64,000 bases of DNA. It comes from Brevibacterium sp. W7.2. GTDB taxonomy: Bacteria > Actinomycetota > Actinomycetes > Actinomycetales > Brevibacteriaceae. The translations under genes and the position numbers were made by a program. Positions 13,037 to 31,958 of this stretch are shown here, piece by piece. Every line of letters begins with the position of its first letter. The first letter of the stretch is position 1. Location of the stretch: NCBI RefSeq assembly GCF_018137945.1, contig NZ_CP073089.1, forward strand, positions 992,001 through 1,056,000, in the 5' to 3' direction. The notes under the pieces are model-generated. The model made no database searches, was not told the DNA's origin, and was given only the letters and a program-made list of their open reading frames with translations.

Positions 13037-14218
13037 TCAGCGGGTCGAGGTGCCCTCCGCGCCCGCCCAGGCGAGGACGTTGAAGCTGCGGCCCATCACC
13101 TGCGGGGTGGGATTCTCGATCGCGCGGGAGTAGTGGCCGACGAGCTGGGAGCACACGCTCTTCCACGAGCGGGACAGCACCTGCTGGCGTCCGGCGACGC
13201 CGAAGGCCCGGCGCTTGGCCTCGTCGCCGAGGAGATCGACGACGTGCTGGCGCATCGCGGCGAGGTCCTTCGGCGCATACAGCCACCCGGTGTGCGAGGA
13301 GTCGACGAGGTCGAGGGGACCGCCGCGGGCGGGAGCGATGACCGGCACTTCCGAGGCCATAGCCTCCTGGATCGTCTGGCAGAACGTCTCGAGCTCACCG
13401 GGAGCGACCATGAGATCGAAGCTCGCGACCGCCTGGGCGAGGGCGTCCCCGCCGAGGAAGCCCGCGAAGTGCGCCTTCGGCAGCAGACGCTCGAGCTTCG
13501 ACCGCCACGGACCGTCGCCGACGATGACGAGCTTGGCATCGGGCACATCGGCGAGCACGCTGAGGTCCTCGACCTGCTTCTCCGCGGCGAGGCGACCGAC
13601 GAAGCCGATGATCCGCTCCCCGTTCGGAGCCACCGAGCGCCGCCACTGCTCGGAGCGGTGGCTGGGGTCGAAGCGGCTCGAGTCGACTCCGCGGGCCCAG
13701 TGATCGACCTCGGCGACGCCGAGGCCCTGGAGCTGCGCGATCGTGTACGACGACGGTGCGAGCGTGAGGGAGGCGTGCTGGTGGATGTTGCGCACGTGGG
13801 TCCACAGCATCGCCTCGATGCCGTGCATCCCGTAGCGCGCGGCGTAGGCGGGCACCTCGGTCTGGTAGATCGCCACGGTCGGCAGGTCGAGGCTCTGCGC
13901 GGCGAGCACCCCGCGCCAGCCGAGGACGAAGGGACTGGCGAGATGGACGACGTCGGGGGCGAACTTCTCGAGCAGACGCCGGATGCGGGTGACGCCGCCG
14001 GGAGCGACGCGGATGCGCCGATACTTCGGCAGGGCGATCGAGGGGACGCGCACGATCCTCGCCCCCGACACCTCCTTGGGGCCGTCGCGGCGAGTGCCCG
14101 GAGCGATGACGAGGACCTCGTCGCCGCGATCGGACAGATGCTCGAGGACCCGCAGGAGTGAGTGGGTGACCCCGTTCATGTTGGGGAGGAAGGATTCTGC
14201 AATGATCGCTACTCTCAC
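13037..14218 (-). CDS. GT4 glycosyltransferase, PimB/MgtA-type mannosyltransferase
   Basis: Family GT4 enzyme of about 393 residues. The N-terminal half opens with VRVAIIAESFLPNMNGVTHSLLRVLEHL and has the acceptor-site region HLASPFVLGWRG. The nucleotide-sugar half has GFVGRLAAEKQVEDL, IVGDGPWRSKLE and the retaining-enzyme motif ELETFCQTIQEAMASEVPVIAP (E-x7-E). Close relatives are GDP-mannose-dependent alpha-mannosyltransferases acting on phosphatidylinositol or glucuronosyl diacylglycerol, so a role in cell-envelope mannolipids is likely. GTG 14218 is chosen because conservation starts there; GTG 14251 is an alternative. Divergent from the LemA-like gene. Confidence 0.87.
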   Translation of the reverse strand: MRVAIIAESFLPNMNGVTHSLLRVLEHLSDRGDEVLVIAPGTRRDGPKEVSGARIVRVPSIALPKYRRIRVAPGGVTRIRRLLEKFAPDVVHLASPFVLGWRGVLAAQSLDLPTVAIYQTEVPAYAARYGMHGIEAMLWTHVRNIHQHASLTLAPSSYTIAQLQGLGVAEVDHWARGVDSSRFDPSHRSEQWRRSVAPNGERIIGFVGRLAAEKQVEDLSVLADVPDAKLVIVGDGPWRSKLERLLPKAHFAGFLGGDALAQAVASFDLMVAPGELETFCQTIQEAMASEVPVIAPARGGPLDLVDSSHTGWLYAPKDLAAMRQHVVDLLGDEAKRRAFGVAGRQQVLSRSWKSVCSQLVGHYSRAIENPTPQVMGRSFNVLAWAGAEGTSTR

Positions 14219-14347
14219 AGCACTCAGTCCACGCCGCCAGAGTGAAGACACGGCGACGGACAGGCGACGTGTCGGCGACCACTGTCGGAAATCGACCCGG
14301 CCAGGTGACCGGGGGTCGACGCGTTCGCGACGAGGGTGAACCCTGCG

Positions 14348-17101: not shown

Positions 17102-19696
17102 ATGTCGAAGCTTCTTCCCAAGGTGCTCGCCGCCGGCGCCGCCGTCTCGCTGCTGACGCTGCCCGGAACCGCGCCGGTCGCCGCGGCCGGACTCGGAGAG
17201 TCCTCAACGACCTCGACCCAGGAGCCGACCGACGACAGCGCACCGGCAGAGACCGGTGCATCGGATCCCGGTGACGCCTCGCCTGCCCCGACGACTGCCC
17301 CGACCGCCGATCCCAATGCCGCTTCGGCCGGCACGAAGGTCCAGCTCATGGGGATCACCGACTTCCACGGTCGGATCTCCGAAGCCGGAGCCCAGGTCGC
17401 CTCGGTGGTCGAAGAGGAGCGCGCGAAGTTCGCAGCCGAGGACAACGCCGCCGGTACCGCCTTCATCGCCGCCGGTGACAGCATCGGCGCCTCGACCTAC
17501 GTGTCGTCCTCGCAGGAGGATTCGCCGACGATCGACGTCCTCAACGCGATCGGACTCCAGGGCTCGGCCACGGGCAACCACGAATACGACAGGGGCATCG
17601 ACGACCTCACCGGCCGCGTCGTCTCGGAAGCCGACTTCCCGTACCTCGCCGCGAACGTCTACGACAAGGGCACGACCGACGTCGTCGACGGTCTCGAGGA
17701 CTACACGACGCTCGACGTCGGAGGTGTGAAGATCGCCGTCATCGGGGTCGTCACCCAGGACACCACCTCACTCGTCTCCCCGGCGGGCATCGCCAACGTC
17801 GACTTCGGCGACCCGACGGACGCCGTCAACCGCGTCGTCGGTGAGATCGAGGCCCTGCCGGAGGATCAGCAGCCGGACATGACGGTCGTCGAGGCCCACC
17901 TCGGCGCCTCTGCCACCGACAGCCTCGAGGCCGCGGAGGCCTCGAACGCGGAGTTCAAGAAGCTCGTCACCGAGGCCGATGCCTCCGTCGACGCCCTGCT
18001 CACCGGTCATACGCACCTCGCATCGAACTTCAACGCCCCCGTCCCCGGCGACCCCGAGCGCACGCGGCCGGTTCTCCAGGCGGGGAACTACGGCTCCTAT
18101 GTCGGGCAGATCAAGCTCGAATCCGACGGTGCGGGCAATTGGACGACATCGAGTTCGGATCTGCTGTCGACCGAGGACAAGGACTACGCCTCGCCGGTCG
18201 TCGACGAGGTGAAGCAGATCGTCGCCGACGCCGAGGAGCAGGCGAAGGGTCCGGGCTCCGTCGTCGAGGGCACGATCACCGAGGACATCACGCGCGCGTT
18301 CACCGAGGACGGTGCGGAGGACCGCGGGGCGGAGTCGACGCTCGGCAACCTCGTCGCCGACTCCCTCAAGGACGGGGTCGAGGACTCCCAGCTCGCGCCC
18401 GCGGACTTCGGCATCACCAACCCCGGCGGACTGCGCACGGATCTCAAGTGCGACGACATCTACAACAACGAGCAGCCGTGCGAGGTCACGGCCGCCGAAC
18501 TCAACGCGGTGCTGCCGTTCGCCAACGACCACGGCGTCGTGACGATGAAGGGCGCCGACGTCATCGGTCTCTTCGAAGAGCAGTGGCAGCCCGACGGCGC
18601 CTCGCGCCCGTTCCTCCACCTCGGCATCTCCAAGGAGCTCGACGTCGTCTACGATTCGACCGCGGCCCGCGGCGAACGCGTGAAGTCGGTCAAGGTCAAC
18701 GGTGAGGAGATCGATCCGAACCGGGACTACCGCGTCGCGACCCTGAGCTTCCTCGCCGCCGGCGGTGACAACTTCTCCTCCTTCGCGAAGGGGTCGTTCG
18801 AGCTCTCGGGCCTCACGGACTTCGAGACGTGGACGAACTACTTCCAGAAGAACTCGCCGGTGGCGCCCGACAAGTCCGAACGGCAGGCCGACGCGGCCCA
18901 GGACGTCATCAGCACCGGTGACGTCACCGCCGAGCTGACCGCCCCGGCCGACGGCATCGCCCCAGGTGCCAGCGGAGACTTCGTCCTGAAGTCGGATTCG
19001 AAGGGCGAGGTGCCCGGACCCATCGACGTCACCGTCGACGTGCCCGAGGGCTACAGCGTCGAGGCGGGGACCCCGCAGTCGGCGACGGCCAAGGCGTCTG
19101 CCGCCGAGGCGGGGGCCCAGGCCGCTGCCGCGACGATCACGCTCGACGGGATCCCGGCCGGGACGAGCGAGGTTCCGATCACCGTCACCGCACCCGAGGA
19201 CGCCTCCGGTGAAGTCACCGTGACGACGACGCTGCAGGCGGGCGAGGCCGACTGGTGGGACAACAACCCGATGCCGCTGCCGCACCCGTTCGAGGCGACG
19301 GCGCAGATCGTCGGCGGGTCCGGTTCCGATGCCGGAGCCGACGCCGACGGCGGCAGTGCGGATGCTGATGGCGGCAGTGCCGATGGCTCGGATCAGGGCG
19401 GTTCGGACGCGTCGTCGAACGGCGGCAGCGCCGACAGCTCGGACCAGGGCGCCTCGGATGCGAACGGTGCGAACGCTTCCGCAGACGGTGCGAACGCCTC
19501 GTCGAACGGCGGGGGAGCGGGCTCGGGTGCCGGTTCGGACTCGGCGTCGAACGCGTCCGGCTCGAAGGATGGCGGTGACCTGCCGCGCACCGGTTTCGAG
19601 GCCCTCAATCTCGTCGCCACCGCACTTGCACTCATCGTCGCCGGCGGCGCTGCCATCGCCGTGGTGCGGCGCAGGAAGGCGAACATCAGCATCTGA
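17102..19696 (+). CDS. Cell-wall-anchored 5'-nucleotidase / UDP-sugar hydrolase
   Basis: Secreted enzyme of 864 residues. A signal peptide (residues 1-28, ending VAAAG) is followed by a Thr/Pro/Asp-rich linker and a metallophosphoesterase domain with GITDFHGRI, AAGDSIG, GNHEYDRG and LTGHTH. The 5'-nucleotidase substrate domain has NPGGLRTDL, LPFANDHG and AGGDNFSSF. After an immunoglobulin-like segment comes a Ser/Asp/Gly/Ala-rich repeat stalk (about 740-825), then the sortase signal LPRTG (near 827), a hydrophobic helix and VVRRRK. It is therefore probably displayed on the wall to release phosphate and nucleosides from nucleotides. The stalk repeats are likely variable. Confidence 0.92.
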   Translation: MSKLLPKVLAAGAAVSLLTLPGTAPVAAAGLGESSTTSTQEPTDDSAPAETGASDPGDASPAPTTAPTADPNAASAGTKVQLMGITDFHGRISEAGAQVASVVEEERAKFAAEDNAAGTAFIAAGDSIGASTYVSSSQEDSPTIDVLNAIGLQGSATGNHEYDRGIDDLTGRVVSEADFPYLAANVYDKGTTDVVDGLEDYTTLDVGGVKIAVIGVVTQDTTSLVSPAGIANVDFGDPTDAVNRVVGEIEALPEDQQPDMTVVEAHLGASATDSLEAAEASNAEFKKLVTEADASVDALLTGHTHLASNFNAPVPGDPERTRPVLQAGNYGSYVGQIKLESDGAGNWTTSSSDLLSTEDKDYASPVVDEVKQIVADAEEQAKGPGSVVEGTITEDITRAFTEDGAEDRGAESTLGNLVADSLKDGVEDSQLAPADFGITNPGGLRTDLKCDDIYNNEQPCEVTAAELNAVLPFANDHGVVTMKGADVIGLFEEQWQPDGASRPFLHLGISKELDVVYDSTAARGERVKSVKVNGEEIDPNRDYRVATLSFLAAGGDNFSSFAKGSFELSGLTDFETWTNYFQKNSPVAPDKSERQADAAQDVISTGDVTAELTAPADGIAPGASGDFVLKSDSKGEVPGPIDVTVDVPEGYSVEAGTPQSATAKASAAEAGAQAAAATITLDGIPAGTSEVPITVTAPEDASGEVTVTTTLQAGEADWWDNNPMPLPHPFEATAQIVGGSGSDAGADADGGSADADGGSADGSDQGGSDASSNGGSADSSDQGASDANGANASADGANASSNGGGAGSGAGSDSASNASGSKDGGDLPRTGFEALNLVATALALIVAGGAAIAVVRRRKANISI

Positions 19697-20134: not shown

Positions 20135-22492
20135 TCAGTTGGACGACTGACGGTCGCCGGAGGTTCCGGCGTCCTCGCGACCGGCCGGCGCTTCGGCGCC
20201 GACCGACGCACCGCGGTGCGTCGCCGACCTCGCACGAGCGTCAGCGCCATCCGACGCGTCACCGTCAGCGGAGACCCCGTCAGCGCCACCGGACGCCCCA
20301 CCGAGACCCGGCGTTGCGCGCCCGGAGCCCGCGGTCGCCTCGGCGCGGGGGTGCGTCTCGAGATGGGCGAGGACGGGGACGAGGAAGAGGATGCCGACGG
20401 CGGGGACGACGATTCCGGAGTCGTTGATGAAGGTGCCGACGCCGAGGAGGATCGCGAGGCTGATCATCGCCGCGCGCAGCAGCGGGAAGCGCGCGTAGAG
20501 GTCGGTGAGTCCGTGCATCGAGAAGCGCGCGGGGGTGAGCGCGACCCAGAACACGGCGATGATGATGAGCGGCAGGATGACCGTCATCCACGACTGCGTG
20601 AGGATGTCGATGTTCATGTCGATCTTGCGCGCGAGCACCCCGAGGGCCTCACCGTTGATGAGCGAGTCGAAGAAGCGGCCGAAGTGCGTGCGCTGGGCAG
20701 CCGGGCGCAGCCAGTCGAGGAAGAGGACGAGGAGCATGACGAAGCCGGCGATGCCGACCGTGAGGCCGAGACGTTTGACCGAGAAGCGGATGCCCGCCGA
20801 GGCGAGGGCGAGGTAGGCGACGCCGATGATGAGCGTGGGCACCGACCCGAACTTAGTGCCGAGCCCCGGAGCGGCGAGCAGCACGCAGGAGAGGAGGACG
20901 GGCACGAGGACGATCGCCAGTCGCGTCAGCGGTCGTCTTGCGAGGGAGGCGAAGCCGGCGACGGCGAGCAGCAGGGCGCAGCAGTAGAGCGCGAGCGCGG
21001 AGTTGCCGATCCCGTAGAACCGGGAGGCGATGAGGAGGGGCTCGCCGAGGAGGGTCGACATCTGCAGCTGCGAGCCGGTGATGACGTCGTAGGCGAGCAC
21101 GCCCACCGTGACGGCGGAGACGAAGAGGACGGGGCCGAGCTGCGAACGGCGCCACGGCCCGAGGAGGGCGAGTGCTCCGAGCACGACGGACCACCCGACG
21201 AGCGCACCGAGCATCGCGATGTCCGGGTTCGTCGCCCGCTCCCACGGGAGGACGTTGACGAGGTACGTCGACACGGGCATCGCCGCGAAGACGACGCCGA
21301 GGCGGTACGCCGTGGAGTGGACGAGCTCGCGATGGCGGCGACGGAGGAACCACGCGAGGGCGAGCAGCCCGGCCATGAGCGAGGCGACGACGGGGAAGAA
21401 CCACGTCGAGATCTCGTTCTGCGTCGTCACCGCGACCTGCCGGTCGAGCACCGACTGGAAGCGCGACTCCCACGACCCGCCGGGGTTCGATGTCATCGGC
21501 GCCCCGGCGACGTTGCCCATCGTCTCCCCGCCGCTCAGCTGGACGAGCGTGGGCGCGATGTCGGGCACCTGGATGAGCCCCGGCTGCCGTGTCGACGAGG
21601 AGGTGAGGAGTCCGGGCTCGGCCCCGGGTTCGAGCATCATCGTCGCCTGCATCGAGGACCCGTCGTGGGTGCCGTCGGCGATCGAGGCGAAGATGATCGG
21701 CGAGGTGCCCTCGCCGATGCCGGCCGCCGGGTCGGCGCCGAGCCAGCCGGTCGCGGTGAGGATCGCCCCGACCCGACGGTCGAGGTCTTTGAGCGAGTAG
21801 CCGTCGGCCTCCGAATTGCCGAGGTCGACGATGGCGAGCTCGCCGGATTCCGACGCCGAGGCGGCCCGGAGGCCGATGTCGTCGGCGATCGGCTCCCACT
21901 GGCCGATGCGACCGCTCGGATCGGCCGCGGCGATCGCAGCTCCCGGACCGTAGGCGGAGATCGCCGGGACGGCTTCGGCGAGACCGCCGAGGGCGGCATC
22001 GTAGTTGTCCCCGCGTGCGACCTGCTGAAAGACGTCCCAGTCGGCGACCCAGCCGTCGAGGGGCGGTTGGGGCTTGCGGCACTGCTGCCGCGGTTCGTCG
22101 GCTGCACGGCGGCCCGATCCCACGGCGAGCCACCCGTCGACGGGGCAGCTGACGGAGCGGACGCTGCGCGGGGTCATCGTCCCGATCTGCGAGGACTGCA
22201 TCATCGCCCAGAGGTTCGGAGTCGTCTGCGGGTCGAGGTCCTCGAACGTGAACCCCGAGGTGCCGATGAGGATCGGGGCGTTCTCCGCGGGGCGGGGGGC
22301 GTCGGCGCTCCGGCCGGAACCTGCCGCCTGCGCGGCGCTCGCGGTGCTCGCGGTGTGCGCGGAGTGGCCGGCACCGGCAGCCTGCCCTGTACCGACAGCC
22401 TGCCCGGCCTGCGGCAGGCCGGTGATGAGGACGAGGGCGGCCAGCGCCCCGAGGAGGACGCGCAGCAGCCACGGACGCACGGCAGCGCTCAT
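20135..22492 (-). CDS. Membrane protein with degenerate phosphatase-like ectodomain, paralogue B
   Basis: Unrecognised 785-residue protein, paralogous to its upstream neighbour. A signal or anchor helix (residues 5-30) precedes an extracytoplasmic part of about 330 residues. That part echoes the alkaline-phosphatase/sulfatase fold: ILIGTSGFTFEDLDPQTTPNLWAMM at its start and VPDIAPTLVQLSGG at its end. The usual metal-binding Asp-Gly and Asp-His motifs are not visible. About ten hydrophobic helices follow, with a conserved loop SQLQMSTLLGEPLLIASRFYGIGN and DWLRPAAQRTHFGRFFDSL. The C-terminal 75 residues are disordered. It overlaps the upstream gene by 4 bases (ATGA). Confidence 0.8.
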   Translation of the reverse strand: MSAAVRPWLLRVLLGALAALVLITGLPQAGQAVGTGQAAGAGHSAHTASTASAAQAAGSGRSADAPRPAENAPILIGTSGFTFEDLDPQTTPNLWAMMQSSQIGTMTPRSVRSVSCPVDGWLAVGSGRRAADEPRQQCRKPQPPLDGWVADWDVFQQVARGDNYDAALGGLAEAVPAISAYGPGAAIAAADPSGRIGQWEPIADDIGLRAASASESGELAIVDLGNSEADGYSLKDLDRRVGAILTATGWLGADPAAGIGEGTSPIIFASIADGTHDGSSMQATMMLEPGAEPGLLTSSSTRQPGLIQVPDIAPTLVQLSGGETMGNVAGAPMTSNPGGSWESRFQSVLDRQVAVTTQNEISTWFFPVVASLMAGLLALAWFLRRRHRELVHSTAYRLGVVFAAMPVSTYLVNVLPWERATNPDIAMLGALVGWSVVLGALALLGPWRRSQLGPVLFVSAVTVGVLAYDVITGSQLQMSTLLGEPLLIASRFYGIGNSALALYCCALLLAVAGFASLARRPLTRLAIVLVPVLLSCVLLAAPGLGTKFGSVPTLIIGVAYLALASAGIRFSVKRLGLTVGIAGFVMLLVLFLDWLRPAAQRTHFGRFFDSLINGEALGVLARKIDMNIDILTQSWMTVILPLIIIAVFWVALTPARFSMHGLTDLYARFPLLRAAMISLAILLGVGTFINDSGIVVPAVGILFLVPVLAHLETHPRAEATAGSGRATPGLGGASGGADGVSADGDASDGADARARSATHRGASVGAEAPAGREDAGTSGDRQSSN

Positions 22493-25062
22493 CGGCCCGG
22501 TTCCCGGGTCGCGTCGGCGGCGGACGTGAGGAGGGCGGCGGCACCGCGTGTCGTGTCAGTGCCGTGTGGGACGGTGAGGTCATCGGCGCAGAGGGCGAGG
22601 AGGTAGGGCAGGAGGACCATGGCGCCGGTGGAGGGCACGGCGATGCCGGAGTCCGTGAGCACGAGGCCGACGGTGAGCCCGGTGACGGCGGCGAGGAAGC
22701 CGAAGTGGACGTCCTCGTCGGTGAAGACCTCGGGCAGGCGTCCCCGCCAGTGGTCGAGGAACCGCGCGGTCCGGGTCGGCCCCTGGAACCGGGGGAAGTG
22801 GAGGAGGTAGCGGAGGAAGACGAGGATCGCGATGATCGCGAGAGGGGTGACGATCGACAGCGCCGGATTCACCTGGATGATGTGGAGGTTCGCGCTGAGC
22901 TTGCGACCGACGACCTGCAGCGCCTCTCCGGTGACGAGCTGGTCGAAGAAGTTCCCGAAATGAGAGCGGCTGCCGGCCGGTCGCAGCCAGTCGAGGAACG
23001 CGATGCCGATGAGCGCCGCCAGTGACGCGACGCCGATGAGTCCGAGCCGCAGCAGCGAGAGCCGGATGCGGCTGACGAGGGCGAGGAGGACGAGGAGACC
23101 GGCGAGGGTGGCGATCGTGCCGCCGAACTTCGCTCCCCACGACGGGTTCCCGGAGACGAACACCGCAGCCAGGCCGATGACGGCAGGGACGATGAGGACG
23201 AGCCGCTGGTGGCCTGCGGCACGCAGGCGGGAGACGAGGAGGCCGAGGAAGACGAAGAGGCTCGCGATGAAGATCGCAGCGCCCTGATTGCCGAGACCGT
23301 AGTAGCGGCCGCCGACGATCGGGTTGTAGCCGAGCAGCGAATTCGCCTGCAGCCGCGACCCGGTCGCCAGGTCGACGGCGATGATGACGACGGTGAGGAG
23401 GGAGAGCGCGGCGACGCGTCCCCGCCACGTCCGACCCCACGGCGGGAGCAGGGAGAGGAGGAGCATCGCGGCGGCCCCGAGAGCCACGGAGAGGAAGAGA
23501 CCGAACTGCGGGTGCGGGAACCGCGCCCACGGCAGCAGTCCCGCGAGGAACGCCCCCATGGGAATCGTCGCGAGGACGAAGGCGATCCACGCCAGCGTGC
23601 GGTGGACCCAGGCGCCGGTGGTCGGGGCCGGCGCAGCGGCGGCGAGTCCGGCACTGCCGGTGTCCGGGGCCTCCGCGGTGGGCGCTGTGATCGCGCGACC
23701 GCTCCGGTCCGGGTGACCGGTCAGGTCGGCGCGACGGGCGATGGCGCCGCGGAGGCCTGGGGCCCAGCGGTCGATGAAGATCGTGCTGAGCAGAAGCCCG
23801 CAGAGGATGACGAGGACGTAGAAGGCGATGTCGAGGAAGAGGGAGAACGTCGAGAGGTTCTCGTAGACGAACTCCGATTTCGTCGCCTCGGTCTCGAGGT
23901 CGAGGCGACGGTCCTCCGGTGACGCCGATGACGGGGTGACGTCGAGGGAGATCCCGCTCGGGGAGTCGATGCCGAGGCGCTCGAGGATGCCCGGGGCGAG
24001 GTCGGTGATCTGGAGCAGACCCTCCGTCCGCGTCGACGCCGAGGAGAGCGTGCCCGGAACGAAACCGGGTCCCGAGGCGAGGAAGGCCCGCAGCCGGGGA
24101 GAACTCGAACTGTCACCGAGACCGGCGATGATGACAGTCGGCTCCGCCTCCGACTGGGAGCGCAGCTGCTCGAGCCGATCGCCGAGGCGGCGGTCGGCCT
24201 CCTCGACGGAGGCGCGCCGGTCGTAGTCGGTGGGCACGGTGTAGGAGTAGTTGGGGATCGGGTCGAACAGCCACGAACGGGAGCCGATCGATCCGAGATC
24301 GACGAGTGCGAGGCGGCAGTTCGCCGCGATCGCGTCCTCGGTGTAATTGCCGATCTGCCCGTTCTCATCGGCGACGGCGTACGCCGCACCCGGACCCTCG
24401 GCGGCGACGCAGGCGTCGAGGCCGGCAGGCGCGCCTGCCTCACCGACGAGGCGGGAGAGCATTCCGTAGTCGACGGTGTAGCCGGTGCCCTGGTTCGGCT
24501 CCCTGACGGCGTCGAAGTCGGGAATCGTCGCAGGCACCGTCTCTCCGGGACGGGTGAGGAGACTTTCATCACCCTCAGGCCCTTCGGCGACCTCGACCTC
24601 GTCGTCGGCGGCCGGATCGGTGCTCGTCGACGGGGCGATGAGGGCAGGGCAGCGGGCAGGGTTGTCGACGTCGGGTTCGTGAGGGGGACCCGCCTCGGCG
24701 CGGGCACCGGATCCGAAGGACAGCCAGCCCGATGCCGGGCACGTCGCGGACCCGATCGTGCGGACGTTGAGGTTCGCCGCCGCCCCGGTGCGGAAGACCT
24801 CGAAGAGATTCGGAGTCCGCTCCGGATCGATGTCTCCTATGGTCAGACCCGGTATGCCGAAGACAACCGTCTTGCTTTCGGCGGCAGCGGCAGCGCTGTC
24901 ACCGGAGTCGGCCGGCGCCTCGGCGGGGGGTGTCGGAGTCGACTGCGCCCACGCGGGAGATGACGCGGGGGAGACGAAGAGTGCCACGAGCCCGACGATG
25001 ATCCCCAGCACCAGGAGCCGGTGGGAGGGAAGGCGGCGGGGCAGGACGGATTGAGGCGGCAC
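22489..25062 (-). CDS. Membrane protein with degenerate phosphatase-like ectodomain, paralogue A
   Basis: Unrecognised 857-residue protein with the same architecture as its downstream paralogue. A signal peptide ends near PAWAQ (residue 40). The ectodomain begins VVFGIPGLTIGDIDPERTPNLFEVF and includes CPASGWLSFGSGARAE; it ends near residue 380 with ITDLAPGILERLGID. Roughly ten hydrophobic helices follow, with the shared loop SRLQANSLLGYNPIVGGRYYGLGN and DWLRPAGSRSHFGNFFDQL. In true phosphatases of this fold the first strand ends in Asp-Gly; here it is Pro-Gly. Similar GRF/YxGxGN membrane proteins of unknown role occur in actinobacteria (from memory). GTG 25062 is chosen because a -10 box lies 6 bases upstream. 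Confidence 0.82.
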   Translation of the reverse strand: MPPQSVLPRRLPSHRLLVLGIIVGLVALFVSPASSPAWAQSTPTPPAEAPADSGDSAAAAAESKTVVFGIPGLTIGDIDPERTPNLFEVFRTGAAANLNVRTIGSATCPASGWLSFGSGARAEAGPPHEPDVDNPARCPALIAPSTSTDPAADDEVEVAEGPEGDESLLTRPGETVPATIPDFDAVREPNQGTGYTVDYGMLSRLVGEAGAPAGLDACVAAEGPGAAYAVADENGQIGNYTEDAIAANCRLALVDLGSIGSRSWLFDPIPNYSYTVPTDYDRRASVEEADRRLGDRLEQLRSQSEAEPTVIIAGLGDSSSSPRLRAFLASGPGFVPGTLSSASTRTEGLLQITDLAPGILERLGIDSPSGISLDVTPSSASPEDRRLDLETEATKSEFVYENLSTFSLFLDIAFYVLVILCGLLLSTIFIDRWAPGLRGAIARRADLTGHPDRSGRAITAPTAEAPDTGSAGLAAAAPAPTTGAWVHRTLAWIAFVLATIPMGAFLAGLLPWARFPHPQFGLFLSVALGAAAMLLLSLLPPWGRTWRGRVAALSLLTVVIIAVDLATGSRLQANSLLGYNPIVGGRYYGLGNQGAAIFIASLFVFLGLLVSRLRAAGHQRLVLIVPAVIGLAAVFVSGNPSWGAKFGGTIATLAGLLVLLALVSRIRLSLLRLGLIGVASLAALIGIAFLDWLRPAGSRSHFGNFFDQLVTGEALQVVGRKLSANLHIIQVNPALSIVTPLAIIAILVFLRYLLHFPRFQGPTRTARFLDHWRGRLPEVFTDEDVHFGFLAAVTGLTVGLVLTDSGIAVPSTGAMVLLPYLLALCADDLTVPHGTDTTRGAAALLTSAADATREPGR

Positions 25063-25329: not shown

Positions 25330-25773
25330 TTGCGTACGTACACCCCCAAGCCCGGCGATGTCGAGCGCCAGTGGCACGTCATCGACGCCACTGACGTTGT
25401 GCTCGGTCGTCTTGCCACCCAGGTTGCACGCCTGCTGCGCGGCAAGCACAAGACCACGTTCGCCCCGCACATCGATTCCGGTGACTTCGTCATCATCATC
25501 AACGCCGACAAGGTCGCGCTGACCGGCGCGAAGCTCGAGCAGAAGCGCGCTTACCACCACTCGGGCTACCCGGGCGGCCTCAAGAGCGTCAACTACGCCG
25601 AGCTGCTCGCGTCGAACCCCGAGCGCGCAGTCGAGAAGGCTGTCGCCGGCATGGTTCCGAAGACTCGCCTCGGACGCGCCCAGATGCGGAAACTCAAGGT
25701 CTACGCGGGCGCCGAGCACCCGCACGCCTCGCAGAACCCGCAGCCGTACGAACTCAACCAGGTCGCGCAGTAA
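25330..25773 (+). CDS. rplM: 50S ribosomal protein L13
   Basis: Large-subunit protein of 147 residues, standard length. The L13 pattern is plain: [38 protein letters not shown], then [19 protein letters not shown] and [12 protein letters not shown], and [18 protein letters not shown]. It starts with TTG at 25330, 7 bases after AAGAAGG. It is followed 34 bases later by rpsI, the usual L13-S9 pair. Confidence 0.98.
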
Positions 25774-25807: not shown

Positions 25808-26311
25808 GTGGCTGACACCGCCAACGCGACCGAAGTCGAAGAACTGACCGAATACACCTCCGAGACCCCCGCAGACGCCGGCCTGGGCGACCAGACCGCC
25901 GGTGGACGCGGACAGTCCCTCACCGCCCCCGGCAACGGAGTGGGCCGCCGCAAGCAGGCGATCGCCCGCGTCCGCCTCATCCCGGGCTCCGGCGAGTGGA
26001 CGATCAACGGACGCACTCTCGAGGAGTACTTCCCGAACAAGCTGCACCAGCAGCTCGTCAACGAGCCATTCCGCCTGCTCGACCTCGAAGGCCGCTTCGA
26101 CGTCGTCGTGCGCATCTCGGGCGGCGGACCCTCCGGACAGGCCGGTGCCGTCCGTCTGGGCATCGCTCGTTCGCTCAACCAGATCGACGCTGAGTCGAAC
26201 CGCCCCGAACTGAAGAAGGCAGGCTTCCTGCGCCGCGACGCTCGCGTCAAGGAACGCAAGAAGGCCGGTCTCAAGAAGGCCCGCAAGGCTCCGCAGTTCT
26301 CGAAGCGCTGA
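25808..26311 (+). CDS. rpsI: 30S ribosomal protein S9
   Basis: Small-subunit protein of 167 residues whose C-terminal tail reaches the ribosomal P site. The first ~45 residues are an acidic, probably disordered actinobacterial extension. The S9 core begins [19 protein letters not shown] and includes [22 protein letters not shown]. It ends with the invariant basic tail [12 protein letters not shown]. The GTG at 25808 has GAGGAGA upstream. Confidence 0.98.
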
Positions 26312-26395: not shown

Positions 26396-26491
26396 TTCGT
26401 GCATTCACCGCCGAATGGTCACCGCGCGCTCCTCAACGCGCAGATGACCATCGACTAACATCGAAACGAACCTTGAGGAAAGGACTTGCCC

Positions 26492-27844
26492 ATGGCCAGA
26501 CTCTTCGGTACCGACGGAGTGCGCGGACTCGCCAATCGCGACATCACCGCGAAGCTCGCGCTCCAGCTCTCCGTCGCCGCCTCCCGCGTGCTCACCCGCT
26601 CCTGGGACGGCGACCGCCGCCCCTTCGCCGTGATCGGACGCGACACCCGCGTCTCGGGAGAGTTCCTCTCCGCGGCCACGAGTGCGGGCATCGCCTCGGC
26701 AGGTGTGGACGTCCTCGACGCGGGCATGCTGCCCACCCCGGGCATCGCCAGCGTCGTCAAGGACACCGGAGCGGCCTTCGGCGTCGTCATCTCCGCCTCC
26801 CACAACCCCATGCCCGACAACGGCATCAAGTTCTTCGCCGCCGGCGGCACGAAGCTCGACGATGCCGTCGAGGACGCGATCCTCGACATCCTCGACCAGG
26901 AGTGGGAGCGCCCCATCGGCTCCGACGTCGGCCGCATCTCCCGATACCCGGCCGCCGCCGACGAATACACCGAGAAGCTCGTCCGCTCGATCGCGCCCGA
27001 CGGCGTGCGCCCCCTCTCGGGCCTCAAGGTCGTCGCCGACTGCGCTCACGGCGCCGCGTCGATCGTCGGTCCCGCCGCACTCCGTCAGGCCGGGGCCGAG
27101 GTCATCGTCTCCGCCGCCGAACCCGACGGCCTCAACATCAACGACGGTGTCGGGTCGACCCACCTCGAATCCCTCCAGCGCCTCGTCGTCGAGACCCAGT
27201 CCGACCTCGGCGTCGCCTTCGACGGTGACGCCGACCGCTGCCTCGCCGTCGACTCCCTCGGCCGCGTCGTCAACGGCGACCAGCTCATGGGCATCCTCGC
27301 GATCGGACTCAAGGAGCTCGGCGAACTGCGGGGGAACACGCTCGTCACCACAGTGATGTCGAACCTCGGACTGCGCCTGGCGATGGACAAGCACGGCATC
27401 AGCACGGTGCAGACGGCCGTCGGCGACCGCTACGTCCTCGAGCGGATGCTCGCCGATGACTTCGCGCTCGGCGGAGAGCAGTCCGGTCACGTCCTCATGC
27501 TCGATCACGGCACGACCGGTGACGGCGTGCAGACAGCCCTGCACCTGATGAAGCGGATGGCCGACGCGAAGCGGACCCTGGCCGATCTCGCCGCCGAGAT
27601 CCCACAGCTGCCGCAGGCGCTCGTCAACGTCAAGGGCGTCGACAAGCACCGTGTCGACATCCCGGAGGTCGCCGCCGAGGTGGCCGCCGTGGAGACTGAA
27701 CTCAACGGCACCGGCCGGGTGCTGCTGCGCGCCTCGGGCACCGAACCCCTCATCCGCGTCATGGTCGAGGCCGAGACCGAAGAGGTCTCCCAGGTCCAGG
27801 CCGAGCGCCTCGCCGCCGTCGTCAAGGAGCACCTCGCGCTCTGA
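26492..27844 (+). CDS. glmM: Phosphoglucosamine mutase
   Basis: Interconverts glucosamine-6-P and glucosamine-1-P on the way to UDP-GlcNAc for peptidoglycan. It is 450 residues, the usual length. Visible are ARLFGTDGVRGLAN at the N-terminus, the phosphoserine loop SASHNPMPDNGIKFF (Ser near residue 102), the metal loop FDGDADRCLAV near 245, the sugar-binding GGEQSGH near 330 and the phosphate-binding RASGTEPLIRVMVE at the end. ATG 26492 is preferred over TTG 26486 because of its spacing from AAAGGA. Confidence 0.97.
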   Translation: MARLFGTDGVRGLANRDITAKLALQLSVAASRVLTRSWDGDRRPFAVIGRDTRVSGEFLSAATSAGIASAGVDVLDAGMLPTPGIASVVKDTGAAFGVVISASHNPMPDNGIKFFAAGGTKLDDAVEDAILDILDQEWERPIGSDVGRISRYPAAADEYTEKLVRSIAPDGVRPLSGLKVVADCAHGAASIVGPAALRQAGAEVIVSAAEPDGLNINDGVGSTHLESLQRLVVETQSDLGVAFDGDADRCLAVDSLGRVVNGDQLMGILAIGLKELGELRGNTLVTTVMSNLGLRLAMDKHGISTVQTAVGDRYVLERMLADDFALGGEQSGHVLMLDHGTTGDGVQTALHLMKRMADAKRTLADLAAEIPQLPQALVNVKGVDKHRVDIPEVAAEVAAVETELNGTGRVLLRASGTEPLIRVMVEAETEEVSQVQAERLAAVVKEHLAL

Positions 27845-28830: not shown

Positions 28831-29625
28831 CTACTCGTCCTCCGCGATCGGGGCGGTCGTGTAGAGGGAGGTGATCGCCTCGGCGGAGACCTCCTCGGAG
28901 GTGCCCCGCAGCACGATCTCCCCGGACTGCAGGCCGATGATCGTATCGGCGAACTCCCGGGCGAGATCCGGCTGATGGAGGACGGCGGCGACGGCGAGGC
29001 CCTCGTTGTGCGCGAGATCGCGCAGCAGGGACATCACCGTGCGCGCGGCCTGCGGGTCGAGGGCGGCGACGGGTTCGTCGGCCAGCAGCACCTCGGCGCC
29101 CTGGCACAATGCCCGGGCGACTGCCACACGCTGCTGCTGACCGCCCGAGAGCGTGCCGGCCCGGTCGGTCGCCCGGTCGGCGAGACCGACGCGGTCGAGG
29201 GCGACCATGGCCTCCCGGCGGATCGCCGCCGGGAAGAGCCACGGATGGAGCGAGGCGAGGCTCGACATCCGGCCCAGCGCTCCCGCGCACACGTTGTCGA
29301 GCACCGAGCGGCGGGCGACGAGGTGGATCTTCTGGAACACCATGGCCGGGCGGCCGTGGCTGCCGCCGACCTCGATGTCCCCGCTCTGGTAGGGAGTGAG
29401 ACCGGCGACGGCACGCAGCGTCGTCGACTTGCCCGAGCCGTTGGCGCCGAGGAACGCGAGCAGCTCACCGGGGGCGACGCTGAAGCTGACATCGTCGAGC
29501 ACCCGCTTCGACCCGAAGGACACCGCGAGGCCGTCCACCCGGAGCAGGGGAGGCGCCGAGTCGTCGCTTCCCGCTGACCCGGCCGCCTCCTCGGCGGACG
29601 CGGGCTTCACGGTCTTCGTCGCCAT
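28831..29625 (-). CDS. phnC: Phosphonate ABC transporter ATPase PhnC
   Basis: ATPase of about 264 residues. Walker A is GANGSGKST (near residue 52), the signature LSGGQQQRVAVAR (near 155), Walker B VLLADEPVAALD (near 177) and the switch His in AVLHQPDLA. ATG 29625 is preferred because GAGGA lies 9 bases upstream; GTG 29631, overlapping the phnD stop as GTGA, is the alternative. The C-terminus IVLRGTSEEVSAEAITSLYT is typical of PhnC. Cotranscribed with phnD and phnE. Confidence 0.93.
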   Translation of the reverse strand: MATKTVKPASAEEAAGSAGSDDSAPPLLRVDGLAVSFGSKRVLDDVSFSVAPGELLAFLGANGSGKSTTLRAVAGLTPYQSGDIEVGGSHGRPAMVFQKIHLVARRSVLDNVCAGALGRMSSLASLHPWLFPAAIRREAMVALDRVGLADRATDRAGTLSGGQQQRVAVARALCQGAEVLLADEPVAALDPQAARTVMSLLRDLAHNEGLAVAAVLHQPDLAREFADTIIGLQSGEIVLRGTSEEVSAEAITSLYTTAPIAEDE

Positions 29626-29627
29626 GC

Positions 29628-30533
29628 TCACACGTCCTCTTCGGTGAGGTTCATCGTCTCCGCGAGGTCGAACAGCGGCTGGTAGGTCGACTTGTCGACC
29701 TCGATGAGCTGGCCGGCCGGGGTGACACCGAGGTAGCCGGCAACCTCTTCGAGGTCATCGGCGGGCATGTTGAGCAGGGCGTCCTTGACGGCGGCCTTGA
29801 ACTCGGGGTCGGCGTCGGCGCGGACGGTCATCGGGTCGTTCGGGATGGGATCGGACTGCCAGATCTGACGGAAGTCCTCTTCGTTGAAGGTGCCCTCCTT
29901 GATCGCGGTGCCCATCGTCTGCGAGTTGATCTGCGCGGCGTCGACGGCGCCGTTGGTCAGGGCGAGCAGCGACTCGGGGTGGCCGCCGGCGTAGTTGAGG
30001 TTGATGTCGGATTCGGCGATGTTCGCCTCGGCGAGCGCGAAGCGGGGGAGGGCGTCACCCGAGGTCGAGCCCACGCTGCCGAGCGCGAGGTCCTTGCCGC
30101 GCAGGTCTTCGAGCGTCTCGATGTCGGAGTCCTTGGCGACCCAGATGCCGCCGGTGTAGGAGCTGAGCTCACCGTCGGCGGTGCCGAAGGACACGAGCGG
30201 TTCGGCGCCGGCGCGCTCGGAGGCGAAGACGTAGCCGAGCGGGCCGAACTGGCCGATGTCGAGCTTGCCGTTCTCCATGGCGAGCACCTCGGCGGAGTAG
30301 TCCTCGAGGACCTGGACCTCGACCTCGCAGTCGAGGGCCTCACCGAGGGAGGCGCCGACAGCCTGGTAGGCGGGTTCGAGCTTCTGCGGATCCTCGAACG
30401 GCTCGATGCCGAACGTGATCTTGCCGTCGGGGCACGTGGCCGATTCGGCCTCCGCGGCCGGAGTGCAGCCGGCGAGGACGACGGGGGCGAGGACGAGAGC
30501 GGCGGTGGCAAGGGCGATATGAGAGCGTTTCAT
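29628..30533 (-). CDS. phnD: Phosphonate-binding lipoprotein PhnD
   Basis: Substrate-binding protein of 301 residues. The signal peptide ends in the lipobox VVLAGC (Cys near residue 23), so it is membrane-tethered. The PhnD/SsuA-like fold shows ITFGIEPFEDPQKLEPAYQAV, DIGQFGPLGYVFASERAGAEPL, DLRGKDLALGSVGSTSGDALPR and GGHPESLLALTNGAVDAAQINSQT, the last being the phosphonate-binding region. The ATG has GAAGGA upstream. Neighbours suggest an organophosphonate ligand such as aminoethylphosphonate or an N-alkyl form. Confidence 0.92.
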   Translation of the reverse strand: MKRSHIALATAALVLAPVVLAGCTPAAEAESATCPDGKITFGIEPFEDPQKLEPAYQAVGASLGEALDCEVEVQVLEDYSAEVLAMENGKLDIGQFGPLGYVFASERAGAEPLVSFGTADGELSSYTGGIWVAKDSDIETLEDLRGKDLALGSVGSTSGDALPRFALAEANIAESDINLNYAGGHPESLLALTNGAVDAAQINSQTMGTAIKEGTFNEEDFRQIWQSDPIPNDPMTVRADADPEFKAAVKDALLNMPADDLEEVAGYLGVTPAGQLIEVDKSTYQPLFDLAETMNLTEEDV

Positions 30534-30727
30534 GGCGATCCTTCTGGTGTGTGGTGGTTGGTGTCTGGTGATCGGTGCGTGGTGACGGGGTCGATTGCGG
30601 GCAGGACGGAGTTGTGGACAGGACTGTGGTGTGGACGGACAGGGTCTGGTCAGGACGGAGTTCGGTCAGGTCAGGTCTGTGGGCACGGGCGGGCAGGGCG
30701 CGGCAGTCTCTGCCGTGCCCTGCCTCC
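30534..30727. other. Repetitive G/T-rich gap between phnD and the oxidoreductase
   Basis: The plus strand is strikingly G/T-rich, with overlapping words such as GGTGTGTGGTGG, GTGGACAGGACTGTGGTGTGGACGG and GGTCAGGACGGAGTTCGGTCAGGTCAGG. The transcribed minus strand is therefore C/A-rich and unlikely to fold, which may keep the phnD leader open. No gene or clear promoter is seen. Confidence 0.5.
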
Positions 30728-31876
30728 TCAGGCGGCGGGGCGGTCGGCGCGGCGGATGCCGGCGAGGGTGCGCTCGGCGAGTCCGAAGGCGATGGTCATC
30801 CCGATCCCGGTCGCCACGGTCGCGACCGTGGTCCGCTCATCGACGGACTCGACGATGAGCGGGCGGGACTCGCTCGAGGCGTAGACCCCCTGCCAGCGCT
30901 GGCGGATCGAGAACCCGGTGGGCTGATCGAGGACGGCGGCCGCCTCGGCGAGCAGGACCTCCGTCGTCGATTCGGGCAGGAACGGGTCGACGTTCTCCCC
31001 GTAGACGTGGGAGTCGCCGATGATGATCGTCCCGTCGGGCCGGGGTCCGAACATGACGTTCGCGCCGACCGCGAGGAGTTCGGGAGCGCTGCGGGCGACC
31101 TCGTCGCGGACCGCCTCGGCGGCGGGCATCGTGGCGAACGCGTCGTAGCGCAGCAGCGAGGTGCGGGAGAGGATCGCGGCATCGGTGCGGATGTGCTCCG
31201 GGGTCGCGGCCAGGGCCATCGACAGCGCGCATTCGACGAGGCCCGCCTCGGCGGCGAGCTCGGGGAAGAGCGCGGGCAGCTGGTGCCCCGTGCAGACGAT
31301 GACGTGGTCGGCGGTGAACGTGCCCCGGTTGGTCTCGACGACGCCGTCGCCCACCCGACCGACCCGGACTCCGGTGCGGAGCTCGATCGCCGAGGCGGCC
31401 GCCAGGGTCTGCGCGATCCGCGGTGCCGCGGTGCGCGGGTCGACCCGGAGGTCGGCCGTGAGGTGGGCGCCGCCGACGGCGCCGCGCAGGCGAGCGTGCG
31501 GGTCACCGGTGACGGCGGTGGCGAGCCGTTCGGGGGTGAGGAGGTCGATGGCGCCGGGCGCCTTGGACAGTCGTGCCTGTTCGAGCACGGCCATCTGCGC
31601 GTGGGAGGTGGCGACGACGTACGCCCCGGTCTCCGCGGCCCAGAAGCCGGACTCGGCGGCCGCGGCGATCCACTGGTCGCGGCCGGCGGAGGCGAGCTCG
31701 GCGAACTCGTCGGTCTGACCGGTGATGCAGGCATGTCCGAAATTGCGCACCGAGGCACCGCGCGGGGCGGTGTCGACGTCGAGGATCGTCACCGAATGCC
31801 CCCGCCGGGCAGCGGCCCGAGCGTGGGCGAGACCGACGATGCCGGCCCCGACGACGATGATGTGAGAATGGTTCAT
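30728..31876 (-). CDS. Phosphonate-associated FAD-dependent oxidoreductase
   Basis: D-amino-acid-oxidase-like flavoprotein of 382 residues. The FAD-binding loop is HIIVVGAGIVGLAHARAAARRGHSVTILD at the N-terminus, and the C-terminal FAD contact VATVATGIGMTIAFGLAERTLAG follows. It fits the family labelled TIGR03364, found beside phosphonate genes. Members (recalled as PbfD) have been reported to oxidise N-methylated aminoethylphosphonate. ATG 31876 is preferred over longer starts because conservation begins there. Neighbours are phnDCE downstream and a divergent GntR regulator and PhnX-like hydrolase, so the product is probably phosphonoacetaldehyde (inference). Confidence 0.85.
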   Translation of the reverse strand: MNHSHIIVVGAGIVGLAHARAAARRGHSVTILDVDTAPRGASVRNFGHACITGQTDEFAELASAGRDQWIAAAAESGFWAAETGAYVVATSHAQMAVLEQARLSKAPGAIDLLTPERLATAVTGDPHARLRGAVGGAHLTADLRVDPRTAAPRIAQTLAAASAIELRTGVRVGRVGDGVVETNRGTFTADHVIVCTGHQLPALFPELAAEAGLVECALSMALAATPEHIRTDAAILSRTSLLRYDAFATMPAAEAVRDEVARSAPELLAVGANVMFGPRPDGTIIIGDSHVYGENVDPFLPESTTEVLLAEAAAVLDQPTGFSIRQRWQGVYASSESRPLIVESVDERTTVATVATGIGMTIAFGLAERTLAGIRRADRPAA

Positions 31877-31927
31877 GCCTCGAGACTGCCGTGTCGGGAA
31901 CGTCTGGGACAAGCCGATTCGGGGCAT

Positions 31928-31958
31928 GTATATATAAGTTGTTGAGCCGTTCATATAC
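31928..31958. promoter_or_regulatory. Candidate GntR operator in the divergent phosphonate promoter
   Basis: Six-base arms GTATAT (31928-31933) and ATATAC (31953-31958) form an inverted repeat inside an AT-rich island that is exceptional for this window. It lies 52 bases upstream of the oxidoreductase and 84 bases upstream of the GntR gene, a good place for one operator to control both directions. Confidence 0.5.

What the first reader, a model, noticed from the sequence alone, without database searches (positions are those of the whole stretch)
20135..25062. Tandem pair of large membrane proteins with phosphatase-like but metal-site-poor ectodomains
Two adjacent, overlapping genes code for proteins of 857 and 785 residues with the same order: signal, ~330-residue ectodomain, ~10 helices. 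The ectodomain starts like alkaline-phosphatase/sulfatase enzymes (DIDPERTPNL, DLDPQTTPNL) and ends with their DIAPTL-type helix. The expected Asp-Gly metal ligand is Pro-Gly in one copy and Ser-Gly in the other, and no Asp-His pair is seen. The membrane half keeps two shared loops: LLG-x-RYYGxGN and DWLRPA-x-HFGxFFD. This fits a pseudoenzyme-plus-transporter or envelope-polymer machine built as a heterodimer. I know no assigned function.
Basis: partly seen in the sequence, partly recalled or inferred. Interest (0 to 1): 0.72.

Follow-up and report, generated by a model that had tools for sequence, protein, structure and literature searches.

The report
Twin glycan transferases with dead-phosphatase heads
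Two overlapping genes of a Brevibacterium encode sister membrane proteins whose outer domain is predicted to be phosphatase-shaped but lacks the metal site, while their membrane half keeps one nearly invariant set of residues and likely moves sugars from a lipid carrier onto the cell envelope.

Summary
In detail: two overlapping minus-strand genes encode homologous 857- and 785-residue proteins with a signal anchor, an ectodomain predicted to have the alkaline-phosphatase fold, and 11 further helices by hydropathy. The metal site is incomplete in both copies and in all 198 sequences aligned. The conserved centre is the membrane half: Asp, Arg, Asn, His, Arg and Asp residues, predicted to face outward, are kept in 192-198 of 198 sequences from Actinomycetota, Bacillota and a few others. 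Neither protein matches a Pfam or NCBIfam model. In several actinobacterial lineages the gene lies with steA, steB, murJ, a glycosyltransferase and a WecA/MraY-like gene; some relatives are fused to a GT2 glycosyltransferase. In the host's order, presence of the family and of the WecA/MraY-like gene agrees in 144 of 149 genomes. This genome carries that operon elsewhere, without a family gene in it. Best reading: an outer-face lipid-linked-glycan transferase (polymerase or ligase) with a dead phosphatase head, kept as a tandem pair in 51 of 51 Brevibacterium genomes that have it; in some paired lineages one copy has lost an otherwise invariant residue. Evidence that the membrane half has the WaaL/Wzy fold is weak (one Foldseek hit; profile tests inconclusive).

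The parts
22489..25062 (-). Copy B, P0002, 857 aa: signal anchor, pseudo-phosphatase ectodomain, 11 helices
20135..22492 (-). Copy A, P0001, 785 aa, same architecture; overlaps copy B by 4 nt (ATGA)
23923..24885 (-). Copy B ectodomain (residues 60-380), predicted alkaline-phosphatase-superfamily fold, metal site incomplete (Pro71, Asp317-Ser318)
21473..22297 (-). Copy A ectodomain (residues 66-340), same predicted fold, metal site incomplete (Ser79, Asp273-Gly274)
22567..23862 (-). Copy B membrane half (residues 401-832)
20351..21412 (-). Copy A membrane half (residues 361-714)
23287..23373 (-). Copy B outer loop 1, Asp564 to Asn592, with Arg586 (GGRYYGLGN)
21002..21088 (-). Copy A outer loop 1, Asp469 to Asn497, with Arg491 (ASRFYGIGN)
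22900..22992 (-). Copy B outer loop 2, Asp691 to Lys721, with His701 and Arg720
20624..20716 (-). Copy A outer loop 2, Asp593 to Lys623, with His603 and Arg622

Best explanation
The two genes encode sister membrane proteins that likely act as a paired glycosyltransferase: the membrane half would take a glycan from an undecaprenyl-diphosphate-type carrier at the outer face and polymerise it or attach it to the envelope, and the metal-less phosphatase-shaped head would bind the substrate or partner rather than cut it. Shown here: homology of the copies, the incomplete metal site, the nearly invariant residues, genomic context and co-inheritance. Predicted: folds and topology. Inferred: the lipid-linked donor (from a WecA/MraY-like enzyme, GT4/GT2 glycosyltransferases and a second MurJ flippase as partners), the transfer reaction, pairing as a heterodimer, and a link to septal wall work through SteA/SteB.
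For: (1) Asp469, Arg491, Gly494, Asn497, Gly545, His603, Arg622 and Asp691 are kept in 192 to 198 of 198 aligned sequences; hydropathy with the ectodomain outside places them at or beyond the outer ends of helices. CAZy's survey reports outer-face conserved residues in all its diphospholipid-sugar transferase families, and two Args plus a His in O-antigen ligase (PMC10920833, section 11 read; introduction passages). (2) Foldseek lists WaaL 7tpg_B among the 50 rows shown for copy A, the only entry there outside the alkaline-phosphatase superfamily (prob 0.98, E 0.024). (3) In 40 actinobacterial loci that I chose from the hits, genes similar to the L041 reference genes are present as follows: steA and mctB/steB in 14, a WecA/MraY-like gene in 15, MurJ in 13 (references named). 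(4) A GT2 domain is recorded in 23 of 120 listed relatives, N-terminal in the two re-scanned. GT4 matches 25 of 55 upstream-neighbour proteins in mostly Bacillota loci. (5) In 149 genomes of the order, family and WecA/MraY-like gene are both present in 89, both absent in 55, family alone in 5, the other alone in 0. (6) This genome has steA, steB, the WecA/MraY-like gene, murJ, two GT4-type genes and pyrG together.
Against: The WaaL match is weak (TM-score 0.38 by target, rmsd 13.3) and absent from copy B's 50 rows. Profile comparison with Wzy_C proteins gave 0.1-45% depending on the alignment, against 91-97% for the FtsW/Wzy_C positive control; Wzy_C against PMT_2 also reached 45%; one family alignment matched FtsW at 88-95% and PMT_2 at 20%. 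No Pfam hit, so none to Wzy_C. The pair is not inside the SteA operon in this genome. In the loci of mostly Bacillota, steA was seen once in 80 short loci. Six of 57 Brevibacterium genomes lack both genes, so the pathway is dispensable. No glycan product is known to me. One single-copy relative in a steA/murJ locus (L038) has lost several of the conserved residues.
Confidence: 0.55

Rival explanations
1. A transporter or flippase for an envelope lipid, with the dead ectodomain as a substrate gate.
For: Eleven helices after a soluble ectodomain; envelope-gene neighbours.
Against: Where the operon is conserved it already has a MurJ flippase near the family gene. The conserved residues are acid, base and Arg, predicted at the outer face. 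The only transporters in the shown fold rows have prob 0.08-0.14 (URAT1 and BmrCD). MFS and MurJ profiles give 0.1-3.2%.
Confidence: 0.15
2. A scaffold or regulator of SteA/SteB-controlled wall cleavage, with no catalysis of its own.
For: steA and steB present in 14 of 40 chosen loci; SteAB positions a wall hydrolase at the septum in mycobacteria (PMC12977500, abstract and section 10 read).
Against: In mostly Bacillota loci steA appeared once in 80 (loci of at most 8 kb, so distant genes are missed). Nearly invariant His, Arg and Asp residues suggest chemistry.
Confidence: 0.12
3. A phosphotransferase of the LtaS or GPI-ethanolamine-phosphate type that uses the ectodomain with a changed metal site.
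For: Same fold class as LtaS, YejM and NPP; a Ser or Thr stands at the nucleophile column in 82 of 101 A3 rows and the Asp of the Asp-His pair in 71 of 101. A paper title in a search listing calls the related YejM a metalloenzyme (PMC7576196, listing and start of abstract only).
Against: No sequence of 198 has the first Asp together with the Asp-His pair, and none has the first Asp together with the second Asp. The nucleophile column is not Ser/Thr in most of the 59 mostly Bacillota rows.
Confidence: 0.08

Closest known systems
O-antigen ligase WaaL / Wzy polymerases (GT-C type, CAZy GT119-GT135)
   Same: Polytopic; conserved Arg, His and Asp predicted on the outer face; a long outer loop near the C-terminus; neighbours that would make lipid-linked glycans (PMC10920833). 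One Foldseek match.
   Different: No Pfam match; profile similarity inconclusive; carries an alkaline-phosphatase-fold ectodomain; sometimes tandem or fused in pairs.
Alkaline phosphatase superfamily (iPGM, NPP)
   Different: Metal ligands incomplete; nucleophile column not conserved across phyla.
YejM/PbgA, LtaS
   Same: Membrane proteins with a sulfatase-like outer domain; YejM/PbgA and LtaS chains appear in the Foldseek lists.
   Different: PbgA has five helices (passage); here one helix precedes and eleven follow the domain. That helices precede the domain in PbgA and LtaS is recalled.
SteA/SteB cell-separation system
   Same: Shared locus in several actinobacterial lineages, and the operon is present in this genome.
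   Different: The family is not SteA or SteB and its role there is unknown. The abstract and section 10 of PMC12977500 do not mention it; other sections were not read.

Membership tests
Alkaline phosphatase superfamily (catalytic) | Core fold | tested here: met
Alkaline phosphatase superfamily (catalytic) | Two-metal site (first Asp plus Asp-His pair; that these are ligands is recalled) | tested here: not met
   0 of 198 have all three; 46 of 198 have the first Asp; 3 of 198 have the aligned Asp-His pair
Alkaline phosphatase superfamily (catalytic) | Ser/Thr nucleophile | tested here: inconclusive
   Ser/Thr in 82 of 101 A3 rows but scattered residues in the 59 mostly Bacillota rows; the alignment is less sure there
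O-antigen ligase / Wzy, GT-C clan GT-C1 | GT-C fold of the membrane half | tested here: inconclusive
O-antigen ligase / Wzy, GT-C clan GT-C1 | Conserved Arg plus His/Asp on the outer face and a long outer loop near the C-terminus | tested here: met
   the outer side is deduced from hydropathy, not measured
O-antigen ligase / Wzy, GT-C clan GT-C1 | Profile relationship to Wzy_C or FtsW/RodA families | tested here: inconclusive
   hhalign 0.1-45% with Wzy_C and 0.1-95% with FtsW depending on alignment; positive control 91-97%
Wzy_C family, Pfam PF04932 | Match to the Pfam model | tested here: not met
   0 Pfam families at E 0.1 for both copies
O-antigen ligase / Wzy | Transfer of lipid-diphosphate-linked glycan | not testable with these tools
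   needs bench work

The most novel reading that the evidence does not exclude
An unnamed family spanning Actinomycetota and Bacillota is the outer-face polymerase or ligase of an undescribed envelope-glycan pathway that is encoded with the SteAB division system, its own WecA/MraY-like starter and a second MurJ. Its dead phosphatase head reads the phosphate-bearing acceptor, and in several lineages it works as an asymmetric pair in which one copy has decayed.
Probability: 0.35. Interest if true: 0.85.

Novelty: new variant of a known kind. Interest (0 to 1): 0.66.

Why it matters
It gives a likely step to a widespread orphan family (115 of 296 sampled actinomycetote genomes) whose two members here match no Pfam or NCBIfam model. 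It also points to a hidden lipid-linked glycan pathway tied to cell-separation genes, which bears on why SteA/SteB loci are conserved beyond the mycobacteria. The all-or-none pairing in Brevibacterium, and the decay of one copy in some other pairs, make an asymmetric membrane transferase testable.

Tried and rejected
Transporter, scaffold and plain phosphatase readings were weighed and ranked lower (see rivals). The WaaL/Wzy homology test by hhalign was repeated with several alignments. The first looked specific (45% for the A3 membrane half against 0.2-1.6% for four control families), fell with a second Wzy_C set (0.1-30%), and one alignment favoured FtsW (88-95%); I call it inconclusive. PDB sequence searches found no significant relative of the membrane half (best stretch there E 0.59). 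The viral fold library gave two phosphatase-superfamily hits and otherwise E above 0.2. VIA lists were filled by the ectodomain, so the membrane half is barely tested there. The idea that every pair has one dead copy was rejected: the L043 and L052 pairs keep all listed residues in both copies. That degeneration needs a pair was also rejected: L038 is single and degenerate. Eight paper searches showed me no description of this family in the open-licence library; I saw listings, and opened four papers, of which I read abstracts, named sections or passages only.

Full report
What is there. The window lies in a 3.86 Mb one-contig genome; the closest relative of copy B is 97% identical and named Brevibacterium casei. 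Two minus-strand genes, 22489-25062 (copy B, P0002) and 20135-22492 (copy A, P0001), overlap by ATGA. Upstream, in the opposite direction, lie ORFs that I read as rplM (25330-25773), rpsI (25808-26311) and glmM (26486-27844); these names are recalled from the translations. Downstream, convergent, is an LPXTG 5'-nucleotidase-like gene at 17102-19696. So the pair looks like its own two-gene unit, and no further copy was found in the genome. Neither protein has a Pfam or NCBIfam match at E 0.1.

The membrane half. Hydropathy gives 11 helices after the ectodomain plus the N-terminal anchor. With the ectodomain outside, the stretches Asp469-Asn497, Gly545-Gly549, Asp593-Lys623 and Asp691 are at or beyond outer ends of helices. 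Kept as in P0001: Asp469 193, Arg491 197, Gly494 198, Asn497 196, Gly545 198, His603 195, Arg622 193, Asp691 192 of 198 (gaps count as misses). In CAZy's diphospholipid-sugar transferases all conserved residues are on the outer face, and O-antigen ligase uses two Args for the diphosphate and a His for the acceptor (PMC10920833, section 11 and introduction passages). Foldseek lists WaaL 7tpg_B for copy A at E 0.024, prob 0.98, TM-score 0.38, rmsd 13.3, and not in copy B's 50 rows. Profile-profile tests were unstable: 13-45% with a first Wzy_C set, except 0.5-4% for a trimmed Bacillota version; 0.1-30% with a second set; 0.1-11% with FtsW in most runs but 88-95% in one; PMT_2 mostly under 5% but 20% in one; MFS and MurJ 0.1-3.2%. 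Controls gave 91-97% (FtsW against Wzy_C) and up to 45% (Wzy_C against PMT_2). The GT-C assignment is therefore an inference, not a result.

Distribution. The profile hits 115 of 296 sampled actinomycetote genomes (88 of 247 near-complete ones) and 94 of 149 of the order. A motif scan of named genomes hit at least 119 stretches, of which 80 were listed, by title mostly Bacillota with a few Armatimonadota, Actinomycetota and unplaced bacteria; all 80 loci held a family ORF. In the genus, 51 of 57 genomes have the family. Reading the listed rows, all 51 show both copies on one strand of one contig, about 2 kb apart; 6 lack both.

Context. I chose 40 actinobacterial loci of up to 20 kb from the hits. 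By similarity to reference genes of locus L041, steA and mctB (SteB, PF11382) are present in 14, MurJ in 13 and a gene of about 280-360 residues in 15; two MurJ matches, and the steA and mctB of L045, are on the other strand from the family gene. The 280-360-residue gene matches PF00953 (WecA/MraY) in 5 of the 11 members scanned (of 15; best E 3.7e-8; the L041 member is below Pfam's cut-off) and has DDxxG, NLxNLLD and GDAGANxLG stretches; that these are WecA/MraY motifs is recalled. In six of the 25 family-bearing genomes among the 41 searched for MurJ, one MurJ lies about 1.2-1.4 kb upstream, and all six have at least one further MurJ. Other lineages place the family next to a GT4/LPG-synthase fusion, to murA and ATP-synthase genes, or to parB (one representative of each scanned). 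GT2 domains are recorded in 23 of 120 listed rows. In the mostly Bacillota loci, GT4 matches 25 of 55 upstream-neighbour proteins (46 immediate, 9 of 21 second ones). In this genome nadK, recN, steA, steB, the WecA/MraY-like gene, murJ, two GT4-type genes, pyrG and xerD lie together about 0.55 Mb away, and no family gene was found there. Its WecA/MraY-like gene has no Pfam hit of its own but is found by the A7 profile at E 1.4e-63; the second GT4-type gene is a weak match.

Co-inheritance. Across the same 149 genomes, both genes are present in 89 and absent in 55; the family alone occurs in 5 (one of 89% completeness, three of 580 contigs or more, one of good quality), the WecA/MraY-like gene alone in 0 (Fisher p 2e-35, which ignores shared ancestry). 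Both are missing together in at least three Brevibacterium genomes and in single members of families f72 and f75 whose other listed members have both or the family, so joint loss happened more than once. As a comparison, family against Wzy_C agrees in 55 of 100 genomes. The genus-wide test of the WecA/MraY-like gene failed for a machine error.

The pair. On the tree, copy A groups with its relatives from Saxibacter and Spelaeicoccus, while copy B is a separate long branch outside the copy A clade (some deeper forks open). Tandem or fused copies recur in other lineages: L043, L046, L052, Syntrophomonas L136, and fusions in Promicromonospora and Oerskovia. One copy departs from the conserved set in the six Promicromonospora-type first halves examined (Asn497 to Asp, Gly549 to Arg, His603 lost), the Oerskovia first half (Arg622 to Thr), one copy in each of L136 and L123 (Arg622 to Thr or Ile), one L046 copy (Lys623 to Arg, Gly693 to Ser), and mildly in copy B (Asn690 to Thr). 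Two other pairs keep everything in both copies. This favours an asymmetric partnership in some lineages; it does not prove a heterodimer.

Verdict. The head is a pseudoenzyme by its residues; the working part is most likely the membrane half, in a lipid-linked-glycan pathway. The parts of the SteAB paper that I read (PMC12977500, abstract and section 10) do not mention the family.

Noticed in passing
G000:C1:1553500-1573400 (L384): nadK-recN-steA-steB-WecA/MraY-like-murJ-GT4-GT4-pyrG-xerD region of this genome, lacking the family gene that sits in such a locus elsewhere
   Followed up: yes
window 13037-14251 (-): ORF with similarity to the GT4 glycosyltransferase of the operon (E 9.6e-10)
   Followed up: no
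window 17102-19696 (+): LPXTG-anchored 5'-nucleotidase-like protein, convergent with the pair
   Followed up: no
window 28831-31954 (-): Phosphonate-type ABC transporter genes (ATPase, binding protein) and a TIGR03364 (HpnW) FAD oxidoreductase, probably a phosphonate-use cluster
   Followed up: no
L038:8940-11399: Single-copy relative in a steA/murJ locus that has lost the Asn497, Gly549, His603 and Asp691 equivalents
   Followed up: partly
P0316, P0226, P0227: Three actinobacterial relatives have an Asp-His pair at the aligned place in the head, though not the first Asp
   Followed up: no
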